DNA of 64,000 nt from the NCBI RefSeq assembly GCF_900103415.1, contig NZ_FMXB01000010.1, positions 1-64,000 of the forward strand, written 5' to 3'. The notes under the pieces were generated by a model. That model worked only from the letters and a program-made list of their open reading frames with translations. It had not been told where the DNA came from and made no database searches. Of the stretch, positions 6,316 to 43,819 are shown piece after piece; within the stretch, counting starts at the first letter, position 1, and every line of letters begins with the position of its first letter. This DNA is from Methanobrevibacter millerae. Its GTDB lineage: Archaea; Methanobacteriota; Methanobacteria; Methanobacteriales; Methanobacteriaceae. The translations under genes and the position numbers were made by a program.

Positions 6316-7200
6316 TTATTCATCAATGAAATAATTATCATCAATTTTTTTAATTTCATATTTGTTGAATGTAAAAGTACCAACATCATACTCGATCATT
6401 AAATCAGCTAGTTTTTTACCATCTATTAATACGATATTTAAATTATTTTGCTGATTAACATATTCAATAGCGTTTGATGTGAATTTTAAGTTAGTAATAA
6501 AGATACCTTTATTTATTCCCTGACCAAATAATACTCCAATAAAACGTTGCAATAAATCAAAATCAACTTCTTGTTCGTTATTATAATGTTTAATATGAAT
6601 AACAACCTCATCCAAACATAATTTACCTTGATATATGATTCCAGTAGTTTCATTTAAATTTGATAAATTTTTTTCTATTTCCAATGATTTAAAATCAAAA
6701 TATCCCATTTTATTAAGTAATTTAAAAGTTAATTCTTTAAAAATAGAATTATCTATCTTTTGTATTTTTTTAAGTAATTCTTTAGATAAATTATTATTAT
6801 ACTCATTAAATGTTTCTTCAATTAAATCTTCAATATCGACTAATTTCAATTGTTTATTATTTTTTGTTGATTTAAATTCTCTAAATGAATCGAAATTCAT
6901 TAAGATTTTATTTGTAATATTTTGATTTTTTTCGATGACTTCTAATCCTAATGATGTTATATTACAGTAACTTCTTCGTTTACTTTCTATTAATCCAGCT
7001 TTTTTTAGATATGTTCTAGCCCAACCAATTCTATTTTTAATAACTAATTGACCATTTGAATTTCTTTCATTTAATTCTTCATCTGTTAAATATAATTGGT
7101 TAATAATTAATTCATCCATTAATGGAACTGAATATTCTTTTTCATCAGCCAATATTCCCATAACATAATCATATAATTCATCATATTTGGGTATTGTCAT
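6316..7200 (-). CDS. Mrr-like protein with degenerate nuclease centre
   Basis: AAGGAG lies at the right distance before the ATG at 7200; a GTG nine bases upstream is too close to it. Residues 1-95 form the Mrr N-terminal winged helix (KNRIGWARTYLKKAGLIES). Residues ~145-280 match the Mrr catalytic fold: FKELTFKLLNKMGY, then TGIIYQGKLCLDEVVIHIKH, FIGVLFGQGINKGIFITN, and IVLIDGKKLADLMIEYDVGT. Mrr enzymes normally carry an acidic D in the (G)iDGII position and a QxK motif. Here the corresponding residues read TGII and HIK, so the metal-binding Asp seems lost and Gln is replaced while Lys remains. This may be an inactive DNA sensor or a divergent nuclease. It is the last gene of the operon, 14 bases after the A'-like stop. 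Confidence 0.8.
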   Translation of the reverse strand: MTIPKYDELYDYVMGILADEKEYSVPLMDELIINQLYLTDEELNERNSNGQLVIKNRIGWARTYLKKAGLIESKRRSYCNITSLGLEVIEKNQNITNKILMNFDSFREFKSTKNNKQLKLVDIEDLIEETFNEYNNNLSKELLKKIQKIDNSIFKELTFKLLNKMGYFDFKSLEIEKNLSNLNETTGIIYQGKLCLDEVVIHIKHYNNEQEVDFDLLQRFIGVLFGQGINKGIFITNLKFTSNAIEYVNQQNNLNIVLIDGKKLADLMIEYDVGTFTFNKYEIKKIDDNYFIDE

Positions 7201-7214
7201 ATTATACACTCTCC

Positions 7215-10200: not shown

Positions 10201-10994
10201 TCCATGTTTTCAACCAGTCTCTGATTGATACGTAAAATATCTACCAGCTTGTGAGTCAGGTCGTCCTCTGAACGTTCACCGGTATCAAGAGTAATTGACG
10301 GCCTTACAGTTACTGGAGGAACAGGTAAAACTGTTAAAACAAGCCATTCAGGTCTTGCAACTTCAGGGTTGATACCTAAGATGTACATGTCATCGTCAGT
10401 GATTCTTTCAAGCCTTTCCCTGATTTCGGAAGCTGTAAGCTTATAGTCATCCTGGAAAATGCTTGTAGGCTTATCCAAGGTTACAGGAAGCTGAGGAGTA
10501 CCACAGTGAGGACAGCAGTATTTCTCATCGATTTCTTCGTCTTCAGCAGGTTTTTCCTTCATGTCCCTCTTGGATTTGGTGTAAACATCGTTTAAGATTT
10601 TGGAAATGTTTTTCTTGTTTTCCAAGGCCTCTTCGATTTTTTCATGATAATAGAAAATTTCTTCAGGATTTAAGAGAACACGTCCACACTCGTTACAGGT
10701 TGAACGGAGGATTTTGTGAATGATATCACCAAAACCAACGTGAAGAACAGGTCTTGCAAGCTCAATGCTTCCGAAGTGTCCTTGACAGTCTCCTCCTCTT
10801 ACTCCACAGGTATGGCATTTAAGGGAAGGATCCAAAACTCCTAAACGTGGATCCATCAAACCATTTTCAATTGGATATCCATCAGAGTCATAAGTATCTG
10901 GAGTTTCAACACGAACAACAGACATACTACGAATATCCTCTGGAGACATTAGTCCAAAGTTAATTCTTTCGATTTTTTTGATAAATTCTTTCAT
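7215..10994 (-). CDS. RNA polymerase subunit A' paralogue with coiled-coil C-terminal extension
   Basis: The 1259-aa protein is a near-complete archaeal RNA polymerase subunit A' (RpoA1) for about 990 residues. N-terminal zinc ligands are CHTCGVRGGDCQGHFG, a second pair set is CNECGR and CCPHCG, and the active site NADFDGD lies at residues 464-470 with all three aspartates. The bridge-helix/trigger region (HSSYKSGLDPIEFFFHAIGG) is also present. An insertion of roughly 85 residues sits at about 555-640. From residue ~995 the protein changes to an AT-rich, Lys/Glu/Asn-rich coiled coil ending DEDIITKKEFNELKKEL, reminiscent of a SHOCT motif. Canonical A' ends near FDKLIDE. No rpoB, rpoA2 or rpoH is adjacent, so this is not the standard RNA polymerase operon. 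AAGGAGTTAAAACATG supports the start. It sits between the giant coiled-coil gene and the Mrr-like gene. Whether a second, ordinary rpoA1 exists elsewhere cannot be seen here. Confidence 0.9.
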   Translation of the reverse strand: MKEFIKKIERINFGLMSPEDIRSMSVVRVETPDTYDSDGYPIENGLMDPRLGVLDPSLKCHTCGVRGGDCQGHFGSIELARPVLHVGFGDIIHKILRSTCNECGRVLLNPEEIFYYHEKIEEALENKKNISKILNDVYTKSKRDMKEKPAEDEEIDEKYCCPHCGTPQLPVTLDKPTSIFQDDYKLTASEIRERLERITDDDMYILGINPEVARPEWLVLTVLPVPPVTVRPSITLDTGERSEDDLTHKLVDILRINQRLVENMEAGAPQLIVEDLWDLLQYHVTTYFDNEASGVPPSKHRSGRPLKTLTQRLKGKEGRFRSNLSGKRVNFSARTVITPDPNISINEVGVPEMIAKEVTVPAYVNDWNITELKKCVENGPDVHPGANYMITESGNRRRINKETKEYILENLKPGDILERHLRDGDMVLFNRQPSLHRMSMMAHEVRVLPYKTFRLNSCVCPAYNADFDGDEMNMHVFQTDESRAEAKSLMRVQEHILSPRFGGPIIGAIHDHISGAYLLTRKSMKFTEEQALQIIRKSHLAIPENDGEKWLLKAESHETPEVESEIAKKTKNVRGTKDDKVTYLNTLDLTEDEKAKRLKANKWNDEEKEIIKSIAHDRIASEIRQKYEDQSAVDNTESIIEKANGEEWTGKELFSLLLPNQMNLTYKAEICTKCGQCDKILRETPKDEVDYDTLCPIDAYVVIENGILKHGVIDEKAYGSMSGQILDKIVKEYGPGRAKEFLDRSTDLAICGIMQTGITTSLNDFELPDEVQLEINQHLKDSEEKVDKLIKKYKMGYLKAIQGRSLEETLKMRIMQILGEARDKSGEIAEDFLTMEHNQSVVMARTGARASMLNLTQITSCVGQQAVRGGRIHRGYIERTLPHFKRNELGAKAKGFVHSSYKSGLDPIEFFFHAIGGREGLVDTAIRTAQSGYMQRRLVNALQDLQVKRSGLVIDNYGNVVQRIFGEDGVDPAKSDFGRAANFDKLIDEIRLSEKEEGYNFKDISKPKVINKPTVNQEDINKLNEYIELLKNEMSNLKESEIKSFLNEHSEFKNQLETLYLKYNNLLKEMNSTIIQIIRTKKRLNNGSFILFKMERFDNVNDYPEKVEDLLLEIDIKINEIKKSDDYLFIINKTQLLIDKQKLISDIERFIAELNDLKNESNKINVSKSILSDIDKLIHKSNVLIEDLNKEINSYNEFNTVLKNGENSLNNLKSEYISINDKIEQRKNNVMLIEYQILFDEDIITKKEFNELKKELKNN

Positions 10995-11013: not shown

Positions 11014-14000
11014 TTATTTTTTAGACTCTTGAGATCTATCCTTAGGTTTCCTCTTAAATCTATTAATTAATTTACTAAAGACTCCTGAATTGGATTTTTT
11101 ATTTTCAATGTTCTTTTCTCTATCTTCATTAAATTGCTTTATTTTCATATAAAAATCAGCATATTTTGAATCACCTGACTTACCTAAATCATACCATGAC
11201 TTAATATTGTCGCATGAAACTTTCAAATCATCTGAAATAGTTCTTAAATCCTTATTAACATCTAAATTATCAATAATTAACTTCATTTGCTCTGAAATTA
11301 TTTTTTCATTTTCAGAAATTAAATCATTAACTTCACTAGAATAATCAATGTAATCAACTTCTTGGTTGATAAAATTGAAATATCCACTGTCTGTATTCAT
11401 TGAATTTAATTTTGTTTCAAAATATTCAAGTTTACTTTTTAAAGTATAATTGTAATTGTTTATTTTATTTATTAATTTATATTTATCTGTGATTAATGAT
11501 TCAATGAAATTAGTGCTGTTTAATTTAGAGATATGCTCATTGTTTTTAGTAATTTCATTGTTAATTTCTGAAATATTTTGTTTATAGTTTTTAATAGTAT
11601 TTTCTTTTTCTTCTTGTTCTTTCCTGAGTTTATCTTGTTTTTCTTTTTCTTCTTGTTCTTTCCTGAGCTTTTCTTGTTTTTCTTTTTCTTCTTGTTCTTT
11701 CCTGAGCTTTTCTTGTTTTTCTTTTTCTTCTTTTTCTTTTTGTTTTATTTCTTCCATTTTTTTATAAACTACGGATATTTTATCATAAAATTTAATATAA
11801 TCCTTTTTGCCAGATTTACCTAAATCATGCCAAGATTGAATATTATCCAATGAAATCTCTAAATCATCACAGATAGTTTTTAAATCCTTATCTTCATCCA
11901 AATAATCAATAATTAACTCCATTTTCTCGAAAGTTAATTTTTCATTTTCAGAAATCAAATTATTAACATCACTGGAATAATCAATATACTTAAATTTTTC
12001 AATTACTAGTTCATTATCCGAAATATTATCTAAATTAAATTGAATATTTTTTTTATAATTATTTAAATCAATCATATAATTCTTTAATTTACCCAATAAT
12101 AAGAATTTTTCTTTATTAAAAGGTTTTAAAAATATGGTATTTCTTAACTTAAAAATATAGTTATTTGTCTCAGTAATATAACGATCGGTAGTATGTAAAT
12201 CATTTTTCAGCGTCTCACTTGCCATAAAAGAAGGTTTGTCTTTATCTTTCTTTACTTGATATTTATTATTTAAATTCTGATTTTTAGAAATTAACTCGTT
12301 TACTTTACCAGAATAATCAATAAAATTAACATCAATGCTTTTTATATTTGGATTAGTGTTATATTTTAACTTTAAAATATTCGTATTAATATCTCTTTTT
12401 GAATCATTTAAATTAGATTTATAATTCTTTAATTTATTAATTAATGTATATTTATCATTTATTAATGATGTATCAAAATTAATTCTATTTAATTTAGCAA
12501 TATATCCACCAACATTTTTAATTTCATTATCAACCTTTAATAATAAGGTTTCATACTCATTAACTTTATTTTTTGCTTTGAATTTATTAACATCTGTATG
12601 TTTAGAAACATTTTTCTTTGTAGTAGATAACGGTTTGGATATTTTTTTAGAGTGTGAATGCTTATTTTTTGAAATTAACTCGTTTACTTTACCAGAATAA
12701 TCAATAAAATTAACATCAATGCTTTTTATATTTGGATTAGTGTTATATTTTAACTTTAAAATATTTCTATTAATATCTTTCTTTGAATCATTTAAATTAG
12801 ATTTATAATTTTCTAATTTATTAATTAATGTATTTTTATCATTTATTAATAATCTATCAAAATTAATTCTATTTAATTTAGCAATATATCCATTAACACT
12901 TTCAATTTCATTATCAACCTTTAATAATAAGGTTTCATACTCATTAACTTTATTTTTTGCTTTGAATTTATTAACATCTGTATGTTTAGGAACATTTTTC
13001 TTTTTAGTGGATAAAGGTTTAGATGTCTTTTTAGGAAAATCTTCATTTTCAGTGGATGGAGGGATTAATATTTTTTTAGAAATCATATATTCATTTTTTG
13101 AAATTAACTCGTTTACATCGCCAGAATAATCAATAAAATCAACATTAATGGATTTTATAATAATTTTATTTTCCTGTCTAAATTTAGATATAGTATTTTC
13201 AAGATTTTTCCTCGATTCATTTAAATTCGATTTATAAAATTCTAATTTGTTAATTAATATATCTCTATCTAATAGTAAAAATGGGACAAAATTTGCATTA
13301 TTTAACAAATAAATATATCGATGAACATCTGTCAATTCATCATTAATCTTAATTAATAACACTTCATATCCATTAATTCCCTTATCTTTTTCTTTTTTAA
13401 TAGCATTTTTAGAAATTAAATCATTAACTTTACTGGAATAATCAATTAGATTAATTTCAACATCATTTAACTTAAAGTTAGACTTTTTAGATTTTAATTT
13501 AGAGATATTTTTCTCAATAATAGCTTTCGTATTATTCAGATTTGATATATATTTGTTTAGTTCTTTAATTAACTCATCATAATCAGATTTTAATGAATCA
13601 TCAAAGGATTCTGATTTTAGTTTTGATATAAGTTTTTCAACATCTTCCATGTTGGTTTTTAATTCTTTCAATTCATTTTCTAATTTCTCAATATTTTTGT
13701 TAATCTCTTCTTTTTGTTCAATGTATTTATCATTTTTCTTTAATAGTTTATTTACTCTTAATGTAATTGATCTGGTAGTTTTTATATCAAATTCTTTGAC
13801 TTTATCCAATTCATCTAAGGAATATTTTGATAAATTATCTTTAATTGTCTTAATTTCATTTTTCTTGGAGTTTAATTCATATTTCTCATTATTAATATCT
13901 GAAGTTAAATTATAATATTGTGATTTAATTTCTTTATTGGACAAATCAACGCTTTTTAGTTTAAGAATGTTTTTGTCTAAAGATACCTGATTTCTTTGAA

Positions 14001-15561
14001 TCTGTCTTAAATTATCATTCAATCTTTCTTCAATTTTAGCTATTTTGTCTCTTTTTAAAGGAAGATCCTTACTTTCACGTTTTATATTAATAATTCCTGT
14101 TGAAAACTTATTATATGGTGCAATCCCTGCCTTTCCAAGTTTATCCCATCTTTTAATATTATCATAAGGAATATCCAATTGTTTTGCGGATTTAACACTA
14201 TGATTTTCTCGAATAACTGATAATACATAATCAATCTTTTCATCAAGAGATAATAATGAAACATTAATGTGGCCGCAATTTTTACATTTGGCATTATCAT
14301 ATCCCTTTTTCTTTTTACATTTAGGACAGGCTGCATCTTCTAATTTAGCTTTTTTAATTTCATTTATATCTCTAAAAAATTTAATGTATTTATAATTCCC
14401 ATATTTTCCTTCGATATAAAATTTCGTGACTTCAATATTTGACACGCCAACACTTTTAGCTGCTTTAATCATTGTTTTATGGGTTTTAAAAGCATCTACA
14501 ATATCATCTAAAACAGAATTGTCATCACCATTTTGACTAATGAAAGAGTAAACAGTATTTTCATCAGCCAATTTGTAATATTGGCCATTGAAAATAACTA
14601 AGTCAGCATCTTGTAAATTAAAGAGTTTTCCCTGGACGTTTTCAATATTAACATCACTTATCAAAAATTCGTCAAATCCAACATCCTCAATAAATTCAAT
14701 CACATACTGAGCTGTTTTAATCTTTTTATCACAGCTTTTACAATAATCACTATACTTATCTTCTGAAGTCTTTCTAAATTCAGAAATAGGCAGCGTTTTG
14801 TTACATTTTAAGCAGGTTTTCTGCAATGCTTTGTCTGAAGATTTTGAAAGTAAATCAGAGACAACGTTTGAACTGTTATTTTCTTTAAAAAATTGATTTA
14901 ATTGATTTTCTGATGCCAATTCAAATAAATTGGAATCAATAGATTTAACTAAACTAAAATCCTGCAATGTCCAAATAGTGTCGTTTGTTTTAATGACATT
15001 ATTTTCATATAAATTATTCAAATCATCTTTATTAAATGGAATTCCAACGCCCGTAATGGGGATAATTTCTTCTAAAACTTTTACAGCATGCGCTTTCTTG
15101 CTACATTTTCTACATAAGTCACTTTTAGAGTTTTCAGGCAATGTTGTGCCACAAACTTTACATTTTTTTAATTTAGATGATTTTGATTTTGAAGATGAAG
15201 TGGACTTCTTTTTAGATTTGACTGTTTTAGGTTTAGAAGACTTCTTGGTTTTTTTGGATTTAACTTCTGGAAAATCCGCTTCCAACAAAAATTTATCTAT
15301 AACCTCCTGGCTTGCAAGCTTGTAATTAGGCCCTGAAACCTCCAATAAATCATAATCCATTAATGTAAAAATAATTATATTTGTATTAAAAGATTTACCC
15401 AAGCGTTTTTGTAAAGTCACTTTAGGTACAAAATCCCCTGGTTTAAAATGATTTTCTAAAATTGCATTTAAATATTTCTTGGCATTTAATTTATTTTTGC
15501 AACTGTTACAAATATCATTCTTATTTGAAGTATTATTACCACAATATATACAATTAACCAT
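11014..15561 (-). CDS. Giant zinc-ribbon / HTH / coiled-coil repeat protein, 1515 aa
   Basis: Three N-terminal modules each combine a CxxC...CxxC zinc ribbon with a small winged-helix-like unit, starting near residues 4, 134 and 250. Their shared pattern is ...xxWTLQDxxLVxx...YKLA. A fourth ribbon (CPKCKKKKGYDNAKCKNCG, ~410) is flanked by HTH-like units ending W-x3-GK-x-G. Residues ~480-1400 are long coiled coil, punctuated by six copies of (I/L)DYS(S/G)xVNxLIS(K/E)N near 708, 814, 955, 1082, 1198 and 1406. Two more HTH units (NIQSWHDLGKSG, NIKSWYDLGKSG) occupy the C-terminal part. The ATG overlaps the helicase stop region by eight bases. The architecture suggests a nucleic-acid-binding scaffold. 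It shares modules with the divergent 1375-aa protein. No named family was recognised. Confidence 0.75.
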   Translation of the reverse strand: MVNCIYCGNNTSNKNDICNSCKNKLNAKKYLNAILENHFKPGDFVPKVTLQKRLGKSFNTNIIIFTLMDYDLLEVSGPNYKLASQEVIDKFLLEADFPEVKSKKTKKSSKPKTVKSKKKSTSSSKSKSSKLKKCKVCGTTLPENSKSDLCRKCSKKAHAVKVLEEIIPITGVGIPFNKDDLNNLYENNVIKTNDTIWTLQDFSLVKSIDSNLFELASENQLNQFFKENNSSNVVSDLLSKSSDKALQKTCLKCNKTLPISEFRKTSEDKYSDYCKSCDKKIKTAQYVIEFIEDVGFDEFLISDVNIENVQGKLFNLQDADLVIFNGQYYKLADENTVYSFISQNGDDNSVLDDIVDAFKTHKTMIKAAKSVGVSNIEVTKFYIEGKYGNYKYIKFFRDINEIKKAKLEDAACPKCKKKKGYDNAKCKNCGHINVSLLSLDEKIDYVLSVIRENHSVKSAKQLDIPYDNIKRWDKLGKAGIAPYNKFSTGIINIKRESKDLPLKRDKIAKIEERLNDNLRQIQRNQVSLDKNILKLKSVDLSNKEIKSQYYNLTSDINNEKYELNSKKNEIKTIKDNLSKYSLDELDKVKEFDIKTTRSITLRVNKLLKKNDKYIEQKEEINKNIEKLENELKELKTNMEDVEKLISKLKSESFDDSLKSDYDELIKELNKYISNLNNTKAIIEKNISKLKSKKSNFKLNDVEINLIDYSSKVNDLISKNAIKKEKDKGINGYEVLLIKINDELTDVHRYIYLLNNANFVPFLLLDRDILINKLEFYKSNLNESRKNLENTISKFRQENKIIIKSINVDFIDYSGDVNELISKNEYMISKKILIPPSTENEDFPKKTSKPLSTKKKNVPKHTDVNKFKAKNKVNEYETLLLKVDNEIESVNGYIAKLNRINFDRLLINDKNTLINKLENYKSNLNDSKKDINRNILKLKYNTNPNIKSIDVNFIDYSGKVNELISKNKHSHSKKISKPLSTTKKNVSKHTDVNKFKAKNKVNEYETLLLKVDNEIKNVGGYIAKLNRINFDTSLINDKYTLINKLKNYKSNLNDSKRDINTNILKLKYNTNPNIKSIDVNFIDYSGKVNELISKNQNLNNKYQVKKDKDKPSFMASETLKNDLHTTDRYITETNNYIFKLRNTIFLKPFNKEKFLLLGKLKNYMIDLNNYKKNIQFNLDNISDNELVIEKFKYIDYSSDVNNLISENEKLTFEKMELIIDYLDEDKDLKTICDDLEISLDNIQSWHDLGKSGKKDYIKFYDKISVVYKKMEEIKQKEKEEKEKQEKLRKEQEEKEKQEKLRKEQEEKEKQDKLRKEQEEKENTIKNYKQNISEINNEITKNNEHISKLNSTNFIESLITDKYKLINKINNYNYTLKSKLEYFETKLNSMNTDSGYFNFINQEVDYIDYSSEVNDLISENEKIISEQMKLIIDNLDVNKDLRTISDDLKVSCDNIKSWYDLGKSGDSKYADFYMKIKQFNEDREKNIENKKSNSGVFSKLINRFKRKPKDRSQESKK
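11605..11721 (-). repeat. Three 39-bp tandem repeats coding a 13-residue charged helix
   Basis: The block TTCTTGTTCTTTCCTGAG recurs at 11611, 11650 and 11689, an exact 39-base period. It encodes RKEQEEKEKQ(E/D)KL repeats, an uninterrupted charged alpha helix within the 1515-aa protein. The period is a multiple of three, so copy-number change keeps the frame and only alters helix length. Confidence 0.85.
12287..13055 (-). repeat. Two near-identical ~384-bp tandem coding repeats
   Basis: The block beginning GAAATTAACTCGTTTACTTT at 12287 recurs at 12671 with almost no change over most of the unit, including the 3' KKxVSKHTDVNKFKAKNKVN-encoding part. Each unit is about 128 residues and holds one IDYSGKVNELISKN motif. 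A further, more diverged copy of the motif block starts near 13100. This shows recent in-frame duplication within the giant gene and makes the locus prone to length variation. Confidence 0.85.
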
Positions 15562-17776
15562 CTTCCAATACCTTTACTTCATTATTTTCCTCATTTTCAA
15601 GCTTTAAAAATTCGTTTAAGTAATCTTGTTTGAATATTGAATTAGATATGAAGTAAACCATATTATTTTCACATAAATCCAATAGTCCCTCTGAATCAAA
15701 GAATAGATTCATTTTTAAATCAGCCCTATCTGCAGGGGATAGATAATTGATAAATTTATTCTTTTTAAAGTCTTGGCTTACCTGATCAATTAATAACTCA
15801 ATATTATCTTCATTTAAGATAGTGCTCACATTATAAATTAGATTTTCAATATCGGACTCATTTATCTCATTTCCACGTACTTTAAAAGATATAAAAAATC
15901 CAGTTACCATTTCATGGTATGTATCATGATATAAATTAAATAGCTTCATTAAAAGATTGTTTGCCTTATGGCCTGCAAATGTAAAAATCGTGACTTCATG
16001 GGATTTAGAATCAATATTAACTGGAATTACGCCTTCACTGAATCCATAATCACTGGCTTTAGAAATTGTATTTTTAATATAGTCTCCAGTGCCACCTTTA
16101 AAATCGTTTAAATATCTTTTATCAAAGTTTCCAAGCAAAATGTCATATACTTTTCTTGAAATTAAATAAGGCAGCGGTGGACCATCGGAAAACCAGCTTG
16201 GAATAATGTTTTTTCCATTGATGGAATGTATAACATTTACTTTATATCTATTGTGGTCAATTGAAGTTACGCTCCATAATTTACCTGCCAATACGAATTC
16301 GTCTCCAACCTTAAGGGTTGTTGCAAATGATACATCAAGGCTTCCCACTTCACTTTTTCCTTGAAAAATTTTATATTCCTGACTTGGGTAAAAAACAGCA
16401 AAGAATTCCAAATAATTCCTTTTACCGAACACTTTTTCAAAATTATAACCCAAGCTAATATATCCCTGATTTATATCAACAAATTCCTGTTCTTCCATGA
16501 ATTTCAACATGTTTTTGCAATCTTGATAATCAATGTCAGAGAATGCATAACATCCTTTAAGTTCGCCATATAATTCTTTAGCATGAGCTTTGCCTTTTTC
16601 AAATGTAGAACTTAGCAATTGATGGAAAAATATGTCTTTTGAATGAGTTGAAATACTGATTTCTTCCACCTTATTTTCATGATGCAAAATCAGTTCCGCT
16701 AAAGATACGATTAAATTAATTCCTTGTGAAAGGATTATGGTTCTTTGTACTCGAGACCTACGTCCGCTTCGACCAACTCGCTGGGAAAATGAACTTACGG
16801 TTGAAGGTGGGTTTAAATGTACAACTACATCTATATCACCAATGTCAATTCCAAGCTCCAAGGTTGAAGTTGATACCATAAATCCGCCAGCATCATTTTT
16901 GAACTTTCTTTCATTTTCCTCACGGGTATCTTTATTAATTGACCCATGATGAATGTAAATGTTGCTTAATTTCAACTTCTTTTTCAAAATTCTAAAAACT
17001 AACTCAGCAGTTGCTCTTGAATTAACAAAAATCAATACTTTTCGGCCAATAAAACGTTTTAATGGGGTATCGATATTAAATTCATTATATGGAAGAACCT
17101 TATATTTAAGCTCACGCCCAGATGTATCTCTAACGATATTTGCAGGATTATCCGGATTAATCCATTCGGCAATTAAATTAGGATTTCCAACAGTGGCTGA
17201 AAGGCCAACCGTAACGATATCTTCTGATGTATATTTTTTAATCCTATTTAAAAGTGAATTTAACTGTATTCCCCTATCTGAATCAGCGAAATAATGAATT
17301 TCATCAATCAGAATAAATTTAATGTTAGAGAAAATATTTTCTTTATCGTTGTCATTCTTATTCATTAATATAACTTCTAATGATTCAGGAGTTATGCATA
17401 AAAAATCGCTAGGGTCACGGATAAATTTATCTTTTTCAGTTTTAGAAACATCACCATGCCATTTTGTAACTGTTAAATCAAAATAATCAGCCCATCTTTC
17501 AATACGATTATACATATCGTTAATTAAGGCTTTTAGGGGAGATACATATAGAACGCTTAATGGCTCATGTCCTTTAGAAAGAATATCATTAAAGATTGGA
17601 ATTAAAGCTGCTTCAGTTTTACCCGAAGCAGTCGGAGCCAATATCAATGTATCATTTTTATCCAAAACACTGGGAATGGCCTTGTTTTGAATTGAATTTA
17701 AATCTTTCCAGCCTAATCGCTCAGATAAGAAATACAAAAGGCGACTATCTAAAGTTGAAATAAGATTATCCGGCAT
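15554..17776 (-). CDS. BrxHI/Lhr-like superfamily II DEAD/DEAH helicase
   Basis: The 740-aa protein shows motif I APTASGKT (47-54), motif II DEIHYF (~157), motif III SATVGNP, a TSTLELGIDIGDIDVV block and motif VI QRVGRSGRR (~335). A C-terminal region of ~350 residues is typical of Lhr-like helicases such as BrxHI of BREX type 2/3 loci. These enzymes use ATP to move on or unwind nucleic acid. The gene lies 10 bases downstream of a BrxD-type ATPase, the same pairing as in BREX, and it overlaps the start of the 1515-aa gene. AAGGTTAAAATATG supports the start. Family assignment is firm; substrate is unknown. Confidence 0.88.
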   Translation of the reverse strand: MPDNLISTLDSRLLYFLSERLGWKDLNSIQNKAIPSVLDKNDTLILAPTASGKTEAALIPIFNDILSKGHEPLSVLYVSPLKALINDMYNRIERWADYFDLTVTKWHGDVSKTEKDKFIRDPSDFLCITPESLEVILMNKNDNDKENIFSNIKFILIDEIHYFADSDRGIQLNSLLNRIKKYTSEDIVTVGLSATVGNPNLIAEWINPDNPANIVRDTSGRELKYKVLPYNEFNIDTPLKRFIGRKVLIFVNSRATAELVFRILKKKLKLSNIYIHHGSINKDTREENERKFKNDAGGFMVSTSTLELGIDIGDIDVVVHLNPPSTVSSFSQRVGRSGRRSRVQRTIILSQGINLIVSLAELILHHENKVEEISISTHSKDIFFHQLLSSTFEKGKAHAKELYGELKGCYAFSDIDYQDCKNMLKFMEEQEFVDINQGYISLGYNFEKVFGKRNYLEFFAVFYPSQEYKIFQGKSEVGSLDVSFATTLKVGDEFVLAGKLWSVTSIDHNRYKVNVIHSINGKNIIPSWFSDGPPLPYLISRKVYDILLGNFDKRYLNDFKGGTGDYIKNTISKASDYGFSEGVIPVNIDSKSHEVTIFTFAGHKANNLLMKLFNLYHDTYHEMVTGFFISFKVRGNEINESDIENLIYNVSTILNEDNIELLIDQVSQDFKKNKFINYLSPADRADLKMNLFFDSEGLLDLCENNMVYFISNSIFKQDYLNEFLKLENEENNEVKVLEDG

Positions 17777-17786
17777 ATTTTAACCT

Positions 17787-19049
17787 TTACCAATCGTCGT
17801 CAAAAATATCGTCGATATCGTCTTCTAAAGTATTTTCTTGTTCGTCGAATAATTCTATTATCTGTTTGGTATCATTGAAGAATGACTGGTTTTGTTGAAC
17901 GGTATCCAGCACGCTAACAAATGAACGGATGAATGTTCTTGGAGTAACTCTGCCTCCAGTCAATCTAGCGTTGTTAATATGTATTGCAACAATATCATTA
18001 ATGGTTGGAGTTATCTTATCGCTTGCATTCCAGCCATATGCCTCTTCATGCATTATCATTAATTTGCCTGCTATTTCAACCAAATCCTCTTCAGTAAATC
18101 CTTTAAGCTCAAAAATTGGACGCCTTACATCAGTTAAATCAGTGTCAAGCATTGATTTAATCCTATCGTGCAATGCTGTATAGGAAACAATACCTTTTTT
18201 GGAATCATCAAATAACGGAGGAGTACCTGCAAAAACAAATAATGAATTATGGAATTTACCTAAATCACAATTATCAAACATGACTCTTATGTAATCGTAT
18301 GCAGTGTTTCTTAAATCTTTTCTAGGAATGTCCATTATGGATTCGGCTTCGTCAAAAAGAACAACCAGCCCGGAGTATCCGATTGATTTAACAAAAACGG
18401 ACAATGCCTCCAGATAATTTAAAGCATTGGTTTTGTCAACGTCTCCCTTTACACCAAATTTTCTTTTTTCAGTAAATGGGATATTGCCGTCTCCTCTTAA
18501 CCAAGCTTTTGCATATTCAGCAGTTTTATAGTCTTCTTCATTCATTAATCTATTATAATTTTCAATAGCTACAGCAAAAGCGTTGGAATGTTCTCTGGTG
18601 TTTGCTAAATCGGCATATAAATTCTCTTTAACTAAATTATTCTGTTTGACTGGATCTGATGTTTCTTCAAATGCCATCATTTTTAGGCCGGTAATCCACC
18701 TGTCAATAATATGGTCCAGTGAAGTACCGGTTTTACATCTTAATTTGTTAACAATGCTTCTATAAACGACGTCGATTTTATTAAAGCGAACATCATTTCC
18801 TAATGTGACCCAAGACACAGCAAAGTTTTCTTCATAAGCCATTTCTTCAATGACTTTTAAAAAGAAAGATTTTCCTGCACCAAATTCTCCTTTTATAAAT
18901 TTTACATAGGATTTTTCGTTTTTATCAATTTCTGAAAGTAATCTTTCAAATTCTGAAATTTCCGTGTCACGCCCTAAACAGAATTCCCGTGTACCGTTTT
19001 CAGGTACAATACCATTTTTTAAGGCACTTAATATATATTCATAATTCAT
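17787..19049 (-). CDS. brxD: BrxD-type ATP-binding protein (DUF2791)
   Basis: The 420-aa P-loop protein starts in the DUF2791 style (ALKNGIVPENGTREFCLGRD), then Walker A GEFGAGKS at 54-61 and Walker B LVVLFDEAES near residue 229. TPRTFIRSFVSVLD in the C-terminal part also fits the BrxD family. In BREX type 2/3 systems this ATPase accompanies BrxHI. Here the two are adjacent, but no PglX, PglZ or BrxC is in the window. GGGGGATTATTATG gives the ribosome site. The acidic C-terminal tail (EDDIDDIFDDDW) is typical of interaction tails. The symbol is given by family resemblance, not because a BREX system is present. Confidence 0.85.
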   Translation of the reverse strand: MNYEYILSALKNGIVPENGTREFCLGRDTEISEFERLLSEIDKNEKSYVKFIKGEFGAGKSFFLKVIEEMAYEENFAVSWVTLGNDVRFNKIDVVYRSIVNKLRCKTGTSLDHIIDRWITGLKMMAFEETSDPVKQNNLVKENLYADLANTREHSNAFAVAIENYNRLMNEEDYKTAEYAKAWLRGDGNIPFTEKRKFGVKGDVDKTNALNYLEALSVFVKSIGYSGLVVLFDEAESIMDIPRKDLRNTAYDYIRVMFDNCDLGKFHNSLFVFAGTPPLFDDSKKGIVSYTALHDRIKSMLDTDLTDVRRPIFELKGFTEEDLVEIAGKLMIMHEEAYGWNASDKITPTINDIVAIHINNARLTGGRVTPRTFIRSFVSVLDTVQQNQSFFNDTKQIIELFDEQENTLEDDIDDIFDDDW

Positions 19050-19063
19050 AATAATCCCCCAAA

Positions 19064-20227
19064 TTATTTTAAATCAATATAAGCATATTCTTTTTTCTTT
19101 CCTCTTGTATCATATAGTGGAATGGCTTTATCCGGATCTCTATATGGAACATGAGTAAATTCTAATTCAATTGCATTCCATGAATAAAACTCCACAATAT
19201 AATCATAGCTAACTTTTACGCCTAATGAATTAACAAAATCAGTTAATTTGCGTAAAAATACTTTAATTTCAATTAATTCAGATTTCTGTTTATTTTTTAA
19301 ATTATTATATAAATACAATATTGAATTCATTATAAATTCTTTTAAATTTAAATCAACAATGTCAAAATAAGCAGGGAAAGATTTAATATAATGTATTTTC
19401 CTAATAATGGTCTTGAAATCTTCTTTTGAAATTTCTTTATAATCCGTTCTGAGATATGCGGAAATGGTTTTATTTTTTTCTATAAATGATAATTCATCAC
19501 CCATTTCATTTCCAATAACTGGATTGCTGAAATATCTTATGGATTTTAATTTTAATTGGACATCGGACTGATAATGGGTATAAAAATCAGATTTATCATG
19601 TTTTTCAATGTTTAGGATTTCATCAACCTTAGTTAAACCGAAAAAGTCCAAATGCCCCCGATTGTTAACAATCAATAAAATGTAATCTCCAGGATTAATC
19701 TCTTTAATGATTTTTGATTTCTTTTTTTCAGAGCCAATTTGGTTTAATTCATGGATAGCTTCAAGAATAGAGAATTCCGTTTTATGAATCCAATATTTAG
19801 GTTCAGATGTATCATTGGATAATTTAGCTTTTAAATCTGATTTTTTATTATAATCATCTAGAGTTTTATTTTCAACATGTTTCACTAATACTTCTTGAGA
19901 ATCATCTAAATTATCATTTTCAGACATAATTTCTTCTTTAATGGTTTCTGTATTAGTTTCAGACGCATTGTCAATTGTATCTAATGATTCATTATTAATG
20001 GCATCATCATTTTCATTATCAGTCATTTGAGCATTTAATTGATTTATTACTTCATCATCAAAATAAAATTCATTATTTTCTTCATGAAGCAATTCATAAT
20101 CCTTTAAAAGTTTTAAATAGCTATCAATTTCATTGTCATTGCAAAATTCAGTTAAATCCTCTCGTTTGAATTTTTGAGAAATATCAATATTTTGGGATAA
20201 TCTGAAAATAAATTGCTCAATTAACAT
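19064..20227 (-). CDS. Winged-helix / PUA-EVE-like accessory protein, 387 aa
   Basis: Residues 1-65 look like a winged helix. An acidic low-complexity linker spans ~70-140. The central block (INPGDYILLIVNNRGHLDFF then GLTKVDEI) has the pattern of a PUA/EVE-like fold, which in other proteins reads modified bases. The C-terminal third is helical and ends DKAIPLYDTRGKKKEYAYID. No catalytic motif is visible. The gene is second in the operon, 15 bases before the ATPase gene, and lacks a clear ribosome site: the nearest purine-rich stretch, GAAGGGGG, is about 28 bases upstream. The EVE-like call is tentative. Confidence 0.5.
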   Translation of the reverse strand: MLIEQFIFRLSQNIDISQKFKREDLTEFCNDNEIDSYLKLLKDYELLHEENNEFYFDDEVINQLNAQMTDNENDDAINNESLDTIDNASETNTETIKEEIMSENDNLDDSQEVLVKHVENKTLDDYNKKSDLKAKLSNDTSEPKYWIHKTEFSILEAIHELNQIGSEKKKSKIIKEINPGDYILLIVNNRGHLDFFGLTKVDEILNIEKHDKSDFYTHYQSDVQLKLKSIRYFSNPVIGNEMGDELSFIEKNKTISAYLRTDYKEISKEDFKTIIRKIHYIKSFPAYFDIVDLNLKEFIMNSILYLYNNLKNKQKSELIEIKVFLRKLTDFVNSLGVKVSYDYIVEFYSWNAIELEFTHVPYRDPDKAIPLYDTRGKKKEYAYIDLK

Positions 20228-20284
20228 TTCGTTTTGTTTATTGGATATTTAAAAACCCCCTTCATATTATTTTATAAACAATAA

Positions 20285-20707
20285 TCATTCCAAACCAGTA
20301 TAGGTTAAAATAGCTTTAATATCATTTTCTTCCAGGACTTCTATGGATTTTTCATAACATTCATTCATAACGTCTTCAATATTGGTTTCTAATTCCCATA
20401 AATCCTGAAGGAATTCAAATCCATACTCATCAGCGACTCGTTGTAAGGCATAAACTGACATGAAAATATCATCAATATAACCGTAAGCACCGTAAATCTG
20501 CTCAGGTATGACATCCATAGGAAGAACATAATATGCAATAGCAGCACAAACATCCAATCTCAGCTCTCTAGTAACATTTTGATCTAATACATCACAAAGT
20601 AGTTTAAATAAATTAGGACCTTCATCAATAAAAGAAGCATATTCTCCGTTATAAGCCGCTAAATTTTCTTTTAAAGTATCATAGAAATCCTTGAATTTAT
20701 CTTCCAT
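20285..20707 (-). CDS. DUF1232 (YkvA-like) protein
   Basis: This 140-aa protein has the signature AYYVLPMDVIPEQ followed by GYIDDIFMS (residues 58-84), diagnostic of DUF1232/YkvA. Family members often have a hydrophobic hairpin here and occur beside stress or defence ATPases, but their activity is not established. TATAGGTGTTATTATG gives a GGTG ribosome site. It is the first gene of the seven-gene operon, 57 bases ahead of the winged-helix gene, and faces the 1375-aa gene across a 136-bp divergent promoter. Confidence 0.8.
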   Translation of the reverse strand: MEDKFKDFYDTLKENLAAYNGEYASFIDEGPNLFKLLCDVLDQNVTRELRLDVCAAIAYYVLPMDVIPEQIYGAYGYIDDIFMSVYALQRVADEYGFEFLQDLWELETNIEDVMNECYEKSIEVLEENDIKAILTYTGLE

Positions 20708-20843
20708 AATAACACCTATATTAATATAAGATTATCACACTTTATAAAATTATTTATATGAAAATTATGGATTAAAATCGAAAAAATCATTTGAATAAAA
20801 ATAAATAATGAATGCTATAAAGTTATTATTAAATTAATATAAT
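20708..20843. promoter_or_regulatory. Divergent promoter region of the RpoA'-associated system
   Basis: The only long intergenic gap inside the system separates the two transcription units. Rightward, TATAAAG at 20816-20822 lies about 25 bases before the ATG at 20844, so the 1375-aa mRNA may be leaderless. Leftward, CATATAAAT (reverse complement of 20752-20760) is a plausible TATA box giving a short leader ahead of the DUF1232 gene. Shared control of both arms is likely. Confidence 0.5.
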
Positions 20844-23800
20844 ATGGTTATTTTTATGAATAAAAAAATACAAATTGAACATGAACAATTTTTAAATAAA
20901 TTAAAGGTTAAATATCCTTTAAAAAAAGAAAAGACTTATACTACCAAAAATATTGGAAAAATAGAAAATATTTACTACTCTAAAGGTCGTGGCATTTGGT
21001 TTGCGCATTCTGAAAATGAAAAAAGATATTTTTACATATTTGGAGTTATTAACTCTTCAGATGATTTTTCTTTAGATGAATATGATTTAATTATGGATTT
21101 TCCAAAAGACGAAATATACAATAAGAATTGCTTAGGACAACTAAATAAAAATAACCTATATATTAATAAAAATGTCATGATAAAAAAATTCCCTGACTTT
21201 GATTTAAGTACTTTTCAGGTTAAAAAATCAGCAATATTTCAAAATACCTATATAAACATTGAAATAATAGACTTGGGAAATATAAACAGGAATTTTAATG
21301 AAAATCTTGAAAAATTAATTAAGGAAATTTCAAAAAACAATCCATCATCTGAAATAAGTGATTCTGAACAATCAAAAACTTCAAACGATAAAATAGATGC
21401 CACAAAACTATCAGAACATAACCAATTAATGAAAAAATTCATTAATTTAAAAAATGAAGGAAAAACAAATGAAGAAATTTTGGATGAAATTGATATTCCT
21501 CCATTTTTATTTAAAAATTGGGTAAATCAAGGAAAAATGGGAAATAAAAAATATATGGAATTTTATGAAGCATACCTAATGGATAATGCTCCTAATAAAT
21601 CATCCCAAACAAAATTATCCACTGCAGAGAAAAAACATGTTAATAAAAATGAATGCTATATCTGCGGTAGGACACTAAATAAAAATAACAATAAAAATAT
21701 ATGTAAAAGATGTTTAAGAAAACAATATGCCGTTAAAATCCTTGAAAAACTATTGCCATCAATTGAACCTGGAATTCCATTCCGTCAAAATGATTTAAAA
21801 GCATTGAAATTAGATAGTATTCAAATTCAAGATTATATATGGACATTACAAGAATTCAATTTGATAACAAATGAGAATTCAAGGTATGTTCTTAAAAAAA
21901 GAGAAATTCTAGATGAGTTTGCTCATGAATGTCATCTTGAAATAAATATTACTGAAAAATCGGCTGTTTCCTTAAGCAAAACTTGTCAAACTTGTGGAGA
22001 AACCTTGGATATATCTGACTTTTTTACTAGTGAAAGTAGTGAAGACGGATACGAAGATGATTGTAAGAAATGTAAAAAATTAATTAAATCTGCTATTTTT
22101 TTAAAAGAGCTTAACAAATATGTTAATTGGGGAGAAGAATTCTCAGAAGATGAGTTAATTCCTTATTTTGAAAATAGGATGATATTAAAAGGAAATTTAT
22201 GGAATCTGCTGGATAATGATTTAATAAAAAATAGCGAGGATTCCAAATACATATTAACCGATGAAGAAAAGGGAACTGAATTTATTAATAAATATTACAA
22301 GGAAAAATATGACGTTCCAATCAAGACCACAAAAGAAACCGTGATTGAAAAGCCAGCTAATGAAAATCCTAGAGAGATAGTTTTAGATTCAATGGCTAGG
22401 AGAAGATCCAGAAAAGAAGCTGCAGTAATTGCCAATATTCCTCTTTATAAAATCACACATTGGTTTAATGAAGGTAGAAACGGTTTTGGAAAAGAAAACA
22501 TTGACTTTTATAATAAATTAAAAGAAATTGAAAAAAGAACCAAAGCATTTACTGCTCAAGAAGTTAAAACGCAAATTGATTCATTCATTGACAGTTTTAA
22601 AATAGAAAAAGATACTGAAAAAGCTTGTGTGAAATCTTCTATTGCTAAAGAACACATTAATGATTGGATTATATTGGGTGAAAATAAGATTAATCCATTT
22701 GATTCATTTTTAGATGAATATAATGAAATTAATAATGATTTAGAAGACATTAATGTAGAAGAGTTTAACAAAGCCATTAATAGGAAAAAAAGAAGAATAT
22801 TTTTGGAATATGTGGAGATTGGTGAATCCATCGATAAATCTTGTGAACTAGCATCACTAGAAAAAGAATTGTTTGAAGAATGGATTCGAAAAGGAAAAGA
22901 AAATAAAGAACCTTATGTGTATTTTTATAACAAATATAATGAAATTAATTGTAAATTAAACCATAATCCAGAAAATGAAGAAAAATTCTTTGATTCAATA
23001 AAAGAAGGCCAAACAATAAATGAAGCATGTATTTCATCAAATTTAGACTATGAATATGTTAAACAAAAAATAATAAACAAAGAAGATGAATTTTATGATA
23101 AATTCGTTGAAACAAAAATATTAAATGAAATTGGGGACTATCCTACCGTTAAACAAGAAGAAAGTTTAGGTGGAGAAAGTATACTCAAAGTAATGAATAA
23201 TATTTTAAAATTAATTGTTAAAGGTAAAACAGACAAAGAAGCCTGTGAAATACTAGATTTTCCATATGATACTTATAAATTTTGGTTAAATAGAGGAGAA
23301 CAAAATATTGGAGAAATTTTTGTTAATTTCTATAATGATATTAATAATATTAATGAATTAAAATCAAAGCTAGTAAAAGAAATTGATGCATCTTTAAATG
23401 ATTCAGAAATGAACGAAAATAATGATTTTAAAACAGAAAATGACATCTATGAGAAATATAAATATTTATTAAATCCCGTTACTGATTATCCCGGTCAAGG
23501 AAATAGAACGGGATTTGCTTGGACAAATAAATCAGGAAATAACTGGATTTATTCAAAATCTATTAATAAACAGCAATTAAAAATAACCGATGAAAATTTC
23601 TATATATTATATGAGAAAGTTTTGGATAGTGGAAATATTTGGGGTGTTATTGAGATAAATAAAGCTATAAACACATTGAAAAATGAACCACATCCAAATA
23701 ACAAATGGAATATAACTGAATTTTTGAATAGATATAGAAACAGTATATATAAAAATTCATATAAAGATTACGCAGAAATAATAGCAAACGATATTCTTGA

Positions 23801-24971
23801 TCCTCTCCCTAAAAAATTTGAAGAAAACTTTACTACACCAAGTAAAACTGGTTTTGCTTGGGTAAACGAATCTTGGAATAAATGGTCATATAGTAGAAAT
23901 ATAAACGGTTTAAACTTCAACTTCAGATCAGAGAATATTTATGAAGTTTTTGAAGAAGTTTGTAGAAATAACTTAACATGGGGAGTTAGAGATAAAAATA
24001 AAGCTTTAAACACATTAAAACTTAGTGAAAATAATTCATCAAAAAATACAAATATATCTACAACAGTTAAACGTCCTGAAGAATATGATGATATTCTAAA
24101 TTCACTTCCAATGAAATATAAAGATATTCTAAAACCAATTGAGGAAGAATATAAAGAAAATTTCAAAACTCCTAGCAAGACAGGTTTTGCATGGGTTGAA
24201 AAACCAAACTATTTATGGATTTTTTCAAGGAGCATTAATGGTGATCAAAAATATTTATCAAATGAAAATATTTTTGAATTATATGAAGAAGTTAATTCAA
24301 ATAATTATGGTTGGGGCGTTAGGGATTATAATAAAGCTATTAAATCTTTAAAAGAAAATAAACAAAATAACTCCCAAATCAAGGTAAAAAAACCTATTGA
24401 ACCCCCAGAAGAGGTTAAAGAAATCATTGATTCACTTCCAAATAACTATAAAGATATACTAAATCCTATTGATGAGAAATATAATGATACATTCCGAGTA
24501 GCAAGTGAAACTGGATTTGCATGGGTAATTAAACCAAATAATTTATGGAGATATGTTCGTAGTGTTAATGGAAAACGAAGCGAATTTAGTAATGAAAATA
24601 TTTATTCATTATTCCATGAAGTTACTAAAAATAATTTGGAATGGGGCGTTAGAAATTATAGTAAAGCTATCAGATCTTTAGAATCTGAAATACCTAAAAA
24701 TTTAGGAGAAAACCTAGAAAAAGAAACGACTAATTTAATAATAAGATATTTATCAAGAACTGATTTTAAAATGAATATTCTAATTAAAGGAACAATATAT
24801 GAAAATGAGTTATTTGATGTTTTATCTGGATTAAAATCTTTTGAAAGTAGTATAACACGAATTATAACTAATAAATATTACATGGAAATTGATTTATTAG
24901 TTGAATTGGATTTAGATGTTAATTTACTTTCAAGATTTGAAAAAGAAATGAAAAATAGAGGATGGTTATAA
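20844..24971 (+). CDS. Modular zinc-ribbon / HTH / TGFAW-repeat protein, 1375 aa
   Basis: After an N-terminal domain of ~155 residues (contains GRGIWFAHSENEKRYFYIFG), an HTH-like unit ends FKNWVNQGKMG (~215). Two zinc-ribbon/winged-helix modules follow (CYICGRTL ~271, CQTCGETLDISD ~381). Five HTH-like repeats (~507-850) show x3-AC-x6-(I/L)...W-x3-G...(F/Y)FYN patterns as in terminase-small-like HTH units. Then four tandem repeats of about 111 residues centre on TGFAW (889, 1001, 1112, 1222), each ending (W/G)WGV(R/I)...KA(I/L)...L. The last ~75 residues form a separate alpha/beta domain. The zinc modules match those of the 1515-aa protein across the divergent promoter. An alternative ATG lies at 20856. 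It is likely a multivalent nucleic-acid or protein scaffold; the family was not recognised. Confidence 0.75.
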   Translation: MVIFMNKKIQIEHEQFLNKLKVKYPLKKEKTYTTKNIGKIENIYYSKGRGIWFAHSENEKRYFYIFGVINSSDDFSLDEYDLIMDFPKDEIYNKNCLGQLNKNNLYINKNVMIKKFPDFDLSTFQVKKSAIFQNTYINIEIIDLGNINRNFNENLEKLIKEISKNNPSSEISDSEQSKTSNDKIDATKLSEHNQLMKKFINLKNEGKTNEEILDEIDIPPFLFKNWVNQGKMGNKKYMEFYEAYLMDNAPNKSSQTKLSTAEKKHVNKNECYICGRTLNKNNNKNICKRCLRKQYAVKILEKLLPSIEPGIPFRQNDLKALKLDSIQIQDYIWTLQEFNLITNENSRYVLKKREILDEFAHECHLEINITEKSAVSLSKTCQTCGETLDISDFFTSESSEDGYEDDCKKCKKLIKSAIFLKELNKYVNWGEEFSEDELIPYFENRMILKGNLWNLLDNDLIKNSEDSKYILTDEEKGTEFINKYYKEKYDVPIKTTKETVIEKPANENPREIVLDSMARRRSRKEAAVIANIPLYKITHWFNEGRNGFGKENIDFYNKLKEIEKRTKAFTAQEVKTQIDSFIDSFKIEKDTEKACVKSSIAKEHINDWIILGENKINPFDSFLDEYNEINNDLEDINVEEFNKAINRKKRRIFLEYVEIGESIDKSCELASLEKELFEEWIRKGKENKEPYVYFYNKYNEINCKLNHNPENEEKFFDSIKEGQTINEACISSNLDYEYVKQKIINKEDEFYDKFVETKILNEIGDYPTVKQEESLGGESILKVMNNILKLIVKGKTDKEACEILDFPYDTYKFWLNRGEQNIGEIFVNFYNDINNINELKSKLVKEIDASLNDSEMNENNDFKTENDIYEKYKYLLNPVTDYPGQGNRTGFAWTNKSGNNWIYSKSINKQQLKITDENFYILYEKVLDSGNIWGVIEINKAINTLKNEPHPNNKWNITEFLNRYRNSIYKNSYKDYAEIIANDILDPLPKKFEENFTTPSKTGFAWVNESWNKWSYSRNINGLNFNFRSENIYEVFEEVCRNNLTWGVRDKNKALNTLKLSENNSSKNTNISTTVKRPEEYDDILNSLPMKYKDILKPIEEEYKENFKTPSKTGFAWVEKPNYLWIFSRSINGDQKYLSNENIFELYEEVNSNNYGWGVRDYNKAIKSLKENKQNNSQIKVKKPIEPPEEVKEIIDSLPNNYKDILNPIDEKYNDTFRVASETGFAWVIKPNNLWRYVRSVNGKRSEFSNENIYSLFHEVTKNNLEWGVRNYSKAIRSLESEIPKNLGENLEKETTNLIIRYLSRTDFKMNILIKGTIYENELFDVLSGLKSFESSITRIITNKYYMEIDLLVELDLDVNLLSRFEKEMKNRGWL
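23510..24680 (+). repeat. Four ~111-residue TGFAW protein repeats
   Basis: TGFAW occurs at four positions at about 333-base intervals in the 1375-aa gene. Each unit has the order YKDIL(N/D/K)P...TGFAW...LW-x3-RS(I/V)NG...(S/T)NENI(Y/F)...LxWGVR-x2-(N/S)KAI-x-(S/T)L. The first copy is most diverged. The aromatic-rich signature suggests a small beta-rich binding domain, unassigned by eye. Confidence 0.8.
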
Positions 24972-32337: not shown

Positions 32338-32392
32338 TTTATACGCAACTTTTTACTATATTAAAAATACTGGAAAAATATGGTGTATAATG
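32338..32392 (+). promoter_or_regulatory. TATA-like element and ribosome site of the CoiA-like gene
   Basis: TTTATACG near 32338 is a fair archaeal TATA box, about 50 bases before the ATG at 32390. GGTG at about 32380 gives a ribosome binding site, so a leader of about 25 bases is expected. Confidence 0.4.
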
Positions 32393-41660: not shown

Positions 41661-41807
41661 GTTTTTGCCTTTTTAATTAATTAAATTATATTTTATCAAT
41701 ATTATATTAAATAATTTTTTTATCACAATTTTCACTTAATAAATTAACAACATATATTAATTCTAGACAATAAATAATAAATTAATTTAACATTAGGAGT
41801 CCATTAA
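41661..41807. promoter_or_regulatory. Divergent promoter region between two McrBC systems
   Basis: Both mcrB genes read outward from this 147-base, extremely AT-rich gap. On the right, TTAGGAGTCCATTAAATG gives a ribosome site. On the left only a weak AAAAAGGC precedes the start. TATA-like sequences abound, so no single box can be chosen. Confidence 0.4.
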
Positions 41808-43811: not shown

Positions 43812-43819
43812 GTTGGAAT

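What the first reader, a model, noticed from the sequence alone, without database searches (positions are those of the whole stretch)
11014..24971. Two unrelated-length giant proteins share zinc/winged-helix and HTH modules
Modules CxxC...CxxC + ...WTLQ(D/E)FxLx... occur in both the 1515-aa and 1375-aa proteins, and both use HTH units ending W-x3-GK-x-G. One continues as a coiled-coil rod, the other as TGFAW repeats. They look like two partners built from one kit on either side of a shared promoter.
Basis: seen in the sequence. Interest (0 to 1): 0.75.

Follow-up and report, generated by a model that had tools for sequence, protein, structure and literature searches.

The report
Zinc/winged-helix giants of archaeal defence locus
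Two giant proteins of a gut methanogen (Methanobrevibacter) do share the same DNA-binding-type building blocks; both flank a helicase/ATPase core known from antiviral systems, in a five-gene set conserved across Methanobacteriales that fits no named system, and here its operon also carries a second, altered copy of the cell's own RNA polymerase subunit.

Summary
Confirmed: the 1515-aa (p1515) and 1375-aa (p1375) proteins share a zinc-knuckle + winged-helix module (3 and 2 copies; blastp E=1e-30) and an HTH module (4 and 5 copies). AlphaFold2 gives the same order of elements in both. p1375 adds four TGFAW repeats and a conserved C-terminal domain; p1515 adds six ~95-aa coiled-coil repeats.
In 152 Methanobacteriota genomes, 17 of 21 BrxD loci have a Zn-WH protein within 6 kb, on the opposite strand in 16; 13 have the DUF1232 gene on the same contig. 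Compact Methanothermobacter-like loci are just DUF1232, 3x Zn-WH, EVE, BrxD, BrxHI. PglZ is missing in 19 of 20 of these genomes and TerB in 20 of 20: neither BREX nor Shango. p1375 is the standard component; p1515 is a rare paralogue (two genomes).
In both of those genomes p1515 is followed by a second RNA polymerase Rpo1N fused to a coiled coil: 93-95% identical to the host's own copy, apparently homogenised with it, but with divergence concentrated in the funnel region. Defence function is inferred, not tested.

The parts
11014..15561 (-). p1515: Zn-WH x3, HTH, zinc ribbon, HTH, coiled-coil rod with two more HTHs
15280..15561 (-). p1515 Zn-WH module 1 (res. 1-94)
   Evidence: HMM; AF2
14881..15168 (-). 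p1515 Zn-WH module 2 (132-227), groups with first modules of p1375-type proteins
14533..14823 (-). p1515 Zn-WH module 3 (247-343), long CxxC spacing like p1375 module 2
14350..14517 (-). p1515 HTH 1
14275..14328 (-). p1515 extra zinc ribbon (CPKC...CKNC)
14080..14241 (-). p1515 HTH 2
11308..13689 (-). p1515 rod: six ~95-aa repeats (res. 625-1418), with HTH 3 (1212-1267) between repeats 5 and 6
11125..11292 (-). p1515 HTH 4
15554..17776 (-). BrxHI/SngC-type SF2 helicase, 740 aa
   Evidence: PADLOC BrxHI 5e-151, SngC 4e-126; Pfam DEAD, Helicase_C, WH_Lhr
17787..19049 (-). BrxD/SngB-type ATPase, 420 aa
   Evidence: Pfam BrxC_BrxD 1e-94; PADLOC BrxD 1e-77, SngB 2e-65
19064..20227 (-). EVE-like protein, 387 aa; its N-terminus looks like a zinc-less copy of the WH
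   Evidence: NCBIfam PRK00809 1e-11, below its cut-off; Pfam EVE 9e-4, below cut-off; WH hit 3e-4
20285..20707 (-). DUF1232 protein, 140 aa
   Evidence: Pfam 3e-8; on the same contig in 13 of 21 BrxD loci
20844..24971 (+). p1375, the standard Zn-WH component of the system
20856..21353 (+). p1375 N-terminal domain (res. 5-170), shared with five other giants
21423..21581 (+). p1375 HTH 1
21645..21929 (+). p1375 Zn-WH module 1
21978..22292 (+). p1375 Zn-WH module 2
22365..23357 (+). p1375 HTH 2-5 (with a half copy)
   Evidence: matches phage small-terminase family phrog_4102 as a sum of weak stretches
23499..24680 (+). p1375 four TGFAW repeats (three strands and two helices each)
24705..24965 (+). 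p1375 C-terminal domain, also in the ~700-aa Methanothermobacter-like proteins
7215..10994 (-). second Rpo1N (A') copy, res. 1-999, fused to a ~260-aa coiled-coil tail
8304..8702 (-). Rpo1N' funnel region (res. 765-897), where divergence from the host's own subunit is concentrated
6316..7209 (-). Mrr-type restriction endonuclease, last gene of the run
   Evidence: Pfam Mrr_N 2e-21, Mrr_cat 4e-18

Best explanation
The two giants are scaffold/sensor subunits of an undescribed BrxD/BrxHI-centred defence system of Methanobacteriales. Core set: DUF1232 protein, EVE-like protein, BrxD ATPase, BrxHI helicase and one multi-module Zn-WH protein. Proposed mechanism (inferred): the tandem winged helices, HTHs and TGFAW domains of p1375 make a long multivalent nucleic-acid binder that, with the EVE reader, marks foreign DNA; BrxD loads the BrxHI helicase there, which remodels or unwinds the invading DNA, and local nucleases (Mrr in this operon) may finish it. 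In this genome and G079 the front end (Zn-WH, Zn-WH, HTH) was duplicated onto a coiled-coil rod (p1515), and the operon captured a copy of the host's Rpo1N with its own coiled coil, probably to bring the complex to transcribing RNA polymerase or to sense factors that attack the polymerase. Shown: shared modules, predicted folds, gene set, conserved arrangement, absence of PglZ and TerB, the fusion. Inferred: nucleic-acid binding, antiviral activity, every step of the mechanism, and any physical contact between the proteins.
For: Shared modules with the same predicted order of elements. BrxD, BrxHI and EVE-like genes between the giants. 17 of 21 BrxD loci in 152 genomes have a Zn-WH protein on the same contig, 0.9-5.7 kb away, on the opposite strand in 16. 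EVE then BrxD in every locus read with flanks, BrxHI next in all but G036. DUF1232 on the same contig in 13. Surroundings: type I RM, Mrr, GmrSD, two McrB-like genes, PD-(D/E)XK, HNH. Rpo1N fusion in two genomes with homologous tails, purifying selection (dN/dS 0.12 and 0.28) and funnel-concentrated divergence (22/133 vs 27/836, P=4e-8; G079 13/133 vs 11/265, P=0.04; between the two canonical copies the same region is conserved, 5/133 vs 30/265). BrxD/BrxHI relatives act in BREX type 2 and Shango (PMC12839542, PMC10250203).
Against: No functional data. No obvious nuclease among the five core genes. Three BrxD loci of one genus (G020, G030, G043) show no Zn-WH gene; in G020 and G030 the contig starts near EVE, but in G043 there is room and none is seen. 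In G036 no BrxHI-like gene adjoins BrxD. Zn-WH and DUF1232 genes also occur away from BrxD, so they may be general parts. Foldseek matches of both models are not significant against PDB (best E about 0.15). Homology of the Rpo1N tail with the p1515 rod is not established: the G079 tail (11.8 bits) beats all 400 shuffles (best 8.1), the G000 tail (6.8) does not.
Confidence: 0.62

Rival explanations
1. The giants are transcription or chromatin regulators of the defence island, not parts of the defence machine: arrays of WH/HTH modules bind many sites and control expression.
For: Divergent arrangement typical of regulators; only DNA-binding-type modules recognised; an orphan 1025-aa Zn-WH/HTH protein sits outside any BrxD locus in this genome.
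Against: Size (up to 2201 aa in G036, with an SF2-helicase-like C-terminus by sequence); rapid change of architecture; p1515 is co-operonic, not divergent; the standard gene stays beside the BrxD core across families.
Confidence: 0.2
2. The locus is a degenerate or partial BREX type 2 or Shango system, the giants being unrelated neighbours.
For: BrxD and BrxHI models match strongly.
Against: PglZ absent in 19 of 20 genomes and TerB in 20 of 20; the same partners recur in two families; type 2 BREX is reported without archaeal members (PMC12839542).
Confidence: 0.08
3. The second Rpo1N is a recent chance duplication or an assembly artefact with no role in the system.
For: 93-95% identity to the host copy; found in only 2 of 152 genomes; in G079 it is split over two contigs joined by a 46-aa overlap.
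Against: Both genomes carry homologous tails right after p1515 (46% identity, E=2e-59); low dN/dS; divergence is not random but concentrated in the funnel.
Confidence: 0.1

Closest known systems
BREX type 2 (BrxD ATPase + BrxHI helicase)
   Same: BrxD and BrxHI homologues, adjacent
   Different: no PglZ in 19 of 20 genomes; no methylase, PglY or PglW among the genes of this run; type 2 reported without archaea (PMC12839542)
Shango (SngA TerB, SngB ATPase, SngC helicase)
   Same: compact operon with SngB- and SngC-like genes
   Different: no TerB in any of 20 genomes; EVE, DUF1232 and Zn-WH proteins instead
Phage endonuclease VII / Lar-like zinc knuckle; phage small-terminase HTH
   Same: the zinc knuckle and HTHs of p1375 match phrog_5558, phrog_2340, phrog_1035 and phrog_4102
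   Different: here joined to winged helices in arrays and cellular; in viral contigs only zinc-knuckle-sized relatives were found
Archaeal RNA polymerase Rpo1N (A')
   Same: whole body conserved, NADFDGD kept
   Different: second copy, divergent funnel, ~260-aa coiled-coil tail, placed in a defence-type operon
EVE/PUA-like modified-base readers
   Same: C-terminal part resembles PRK00809 and Pfam EVE, both below the curated cut-offs
   Different: extra WH-like N-terminus; BrxD/BREX context not mentioned in the EVE survey PMC7641849

Membership tests
BREX | PglZ-family protein | tested here: not met
   absent in 19 of 20 genomes with this locus, including the window's own
BREX | BrxD and BrxHI (type 2) | tested here: met
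BREX | PglX/BrxX methyltransferase and PglY/BrxC beside them | tested here: not met
   none among the ORFs from 6316 to 26738 by Pfam, with PADLOC and NCBIfam for most of them
Shango | SngB-like ATPase and SngC-like helicase | tested here: met
   (2e-65, 4e-126); BrxD and BrxHI models score higher
Shango | TerB protein SngA | tested here: not met
   no TerB match in 20 of 20 genomes
Winged-helix fold (Zn-WH modules) | H-H-H plus beta-wing order of elements | tested here: met
   AF2 models, pLDDT mostly 80-92 in the modules
Winged-helix fold (Zn-WH modules) | significant match to a solved winged-helix structure | tested here: inconclusive
   many top hits contain winged helices (SelB, STK19, Z-alpha, BusR) but all have E>0.1
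Anti-virus defence system | protection against a virus | not testable with these tools
   needs experiment

The most novel reading that the evidence does not exclude
A defence system has captured the host's own RNA polymerase largest subunit as a part: the Rpo1N-coiled-coil fusion assembles into the host polymerase (kept compatible by gene conversion) and, through an altered secondary-channel funnel, either evades or senses viral or host inhibitors that bind there, tying the BrxD/BrxHI/Zn-WH machine to transcription.
Probability: 0.3. Interest if true: 0.93.

Novelty: new variant of a known kind. Interest (0 to 1): 0.74.

Why it matters
It adds a distinct five-gene arrangement, with an uncharacterised Zn-WH module family, to the BREX/Shango group of helicase-ATPase defences, in archaea, where type 2 BREX is reported absent. 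It contains a core RNA polymerase subunit duplicated, fused to a coiled coil and kept in a defence-type operon with funnel-concentrated divergence. Since the archaeal factor TFS4 shuts down RNAP through the NTP-entry channel (PMC9501531), the question whether polymerase itself serves as bait or anchor in prokaryotic immunity becomes directly testable. The compact Methanothermobacter-like loci offer a small version for experiments.

Tried and rejected
Common origin of the p1515 rod and the Rpo1N tail: suggestive pairwise alignment (E 0.001) but not robust against shuffles; left open. Pfam, NCBIfam and PADLOC give no usable match for either giant; SMC/Rad50 hits of p1515 reflect the coiled coil. 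Viral origin of the giants: only zinc-knuckle-sized matches in IMG/VR. Foldseek gave no significant PDB match for p1375; the three BFVD matches below 1e-3 have TM-scores of 0.1 or less and were discarded. A single promoter between p1375 and p1515: the facing gene is DUF1232. An AP2-like fold of the TGFAW repeats and a SHOCT-like end of the Rpo1N tail are leads from memory only. Not searched beyond Methanobacteriota, except for one genome-contig scan with short patterns, which found only Methanobrevibacter.

Full report
Observation. blastp of p1515 against p1375 gives E=1e-30 over 402 collinear residues, and a genome search with p1515 finds p1375 as its only other match, at 2.8e-29. Module HMMs place three and two Zn-WH copies and four and five HTH copies. 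p1375 has four TGFAW repeats, an N-terminal domain shared with five other giants and a C-terminal domain that is also in the ~700-aa Methanothermobacter-like proteins. p1515 has six ~95-aa rod repeats. A tree of 47 modules puts p1515 module 2 with the short-spacing first modules of p1375-type proteins (93/93); module 3 falls with the long-spacing ones, but deep support there is weak. The Zn-WH/Zn-WH/HTH front end therefore looks copied as a unit, before G000 and G079 parted.

Fold. AF2 models of p1515 1-505 (pLDDT 79.9) and p1375 178-1375 (pLDDT 72.2) give the same order in the modules: zinc knuckle, long helix, two helices, two strands, helix. pTM is low (0.38, 0.28), as expected for beads on a string, so the overall arrangement is unknown. 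Many Foldseek top hits contain winged helices, but none is significant.

Context. Between the giants are BrxHI (PADLOC 5e-151; SngC 4e-126), BrxD (1e-77; SngB 2e-65) and an EVE-like protein, all on the minus strand with gaps below 20 bp, continuing through p1515 (8-bp overlap), the second Rpo1N and Mrr. A DUF1232 gene lies 57 bp before them and faces p1375 across 136 bp. The rest of the window holds type I RM, GmrSD, McrB-like and nuclease genes: a defence island. Named relatives are all Methanobrevibacter; the window's own genus is inferred from them and from the shared-genus handles.

Conservation. In 152 Methanobacteriota genomes BrxD is found in 22 (21 full length). In 17 of 21 a Zn-WH protein lies on the same contig, 0.9-5.7 kb away, on the opposite strand in 16; DUF1232 is on the contig in 13. 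For a 2-Mb genome, a 10-kb neighbourhood would be hit by chance in about 0.5% of genomes per Zn-WH locus (my estimate). In seven genomes of family f3 the hits lie in the order DUF1232, Zn-WH, BrxD; reading L139 and L140 in full shows DUF1232, 3x Zn-WH protein, EVE, BrxD, BrxHI with ordinary genes around. G036 carries 11 Zn-WH copies and, by sequence, an SF2-helicase-like C-terminus. Zn-WH plus DUF1232 also occur without BrxD (G057, G059), so they are parts used by more than one kind of locus.

Rpo1N. The gene at 7215-10994 is a second Rpo1N, 94.8% identical over 999 residues to the canonical copy at G000:C3. G079 has the same arrangement: p1515 homologue, then Rpo1N cut by the contig end, its apparent continuation with a homologous tail being on contig C96 (46% identity in the tail, 2e-59). 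Within each genome the fused copy is closer to the host's own copy than to the other genome's fused copy (29 genome-specific against 1 fusion-shared site), with patchy identity along the gene: this fits gene conversion, or repeated replacement by host sequence. Differences cluster in residues 765-897 (22/133 vs 27/836, P=4e-8; in G079 13/133 vs 11/265, P=0.04), a region conserved between the two canonical copies. The P values treat sites as independent and the region was chosen after seeing the pattern, so read them as descriptive. NADFDGD is intact. Most of this stretch is Pfam domain 4 of Rpb1, the funnel (family knowledge), through which TFS factors and TFS4 reach the active site (PMC9501531).

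Mechanism. I favour a multivalent recognition scaffold (Zn-WH giant with EVE) that recruits a BrxD-loaded BrxHI helicase onto invading DNA, with the Rpo1N fusion as anchor or bait in the expanded version. Only the anatomy is shown.

Membership. Not BREX (no PglZ in 19 of 20), not Shango (no TerB in 20 of 20). It probably works like both in pairing a BrxD-type ATPase with a BrxHI-type helicase.

Limits. No wet-lab data; search limited to one phylum; many draft assemblies; shallow alignments for structure prediction (7 and 6 rows).

Noticed in passing
7215-10994: Second Rpo1N (A') gene fused to a coiled coil in a defence-type operon; also in G079 (L018 1212-3519 and L056).
   Followed up: yes
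L056 468-3242 (-): The G079 Rpo1N fusion has about 210 further C-terminal residues after the coiled coil, without a Pfam match, absent from the window's version.
   Followed up: no
L138 3453-6530 (-): Orphan 1025-aa protein of this genome (G000:C4) with one Zn-WH and several HTH modules, not beside BrxD.
   Followed up: partly
L141 2867-12392: Another defence-like cluster in G059: methylase-like ORF, Zn-WH 940-aa protein, helicase-like ORF, RecF-like ORF, DUF1232 (names by eye except Zn-WH and DUF1232).
   Followed up: no
L027 12199-18804: G036: 2201-aa protein with 11 Zn-WH copies and an SF2-helicase-like C-terminus beside BrxD; no BrxHI-like gene adjoins BrxD there.
   Followed up: partly
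G045:C22:38210-41407: Canonical Rpo1N of G045 matches in pieces, with a 1439-aa open frame; it may hold an insertion or an intein.
   Followed up: no
38907-45481: Two McrB-like genes and a DUF2357/PD-(D/E)XK McrC-like gene side by side.
   Followed up: no
32390-33832: Protein with a CoiA-like N-terminal domain (Pfam 3e-11) inside the island.
   Followed up: no
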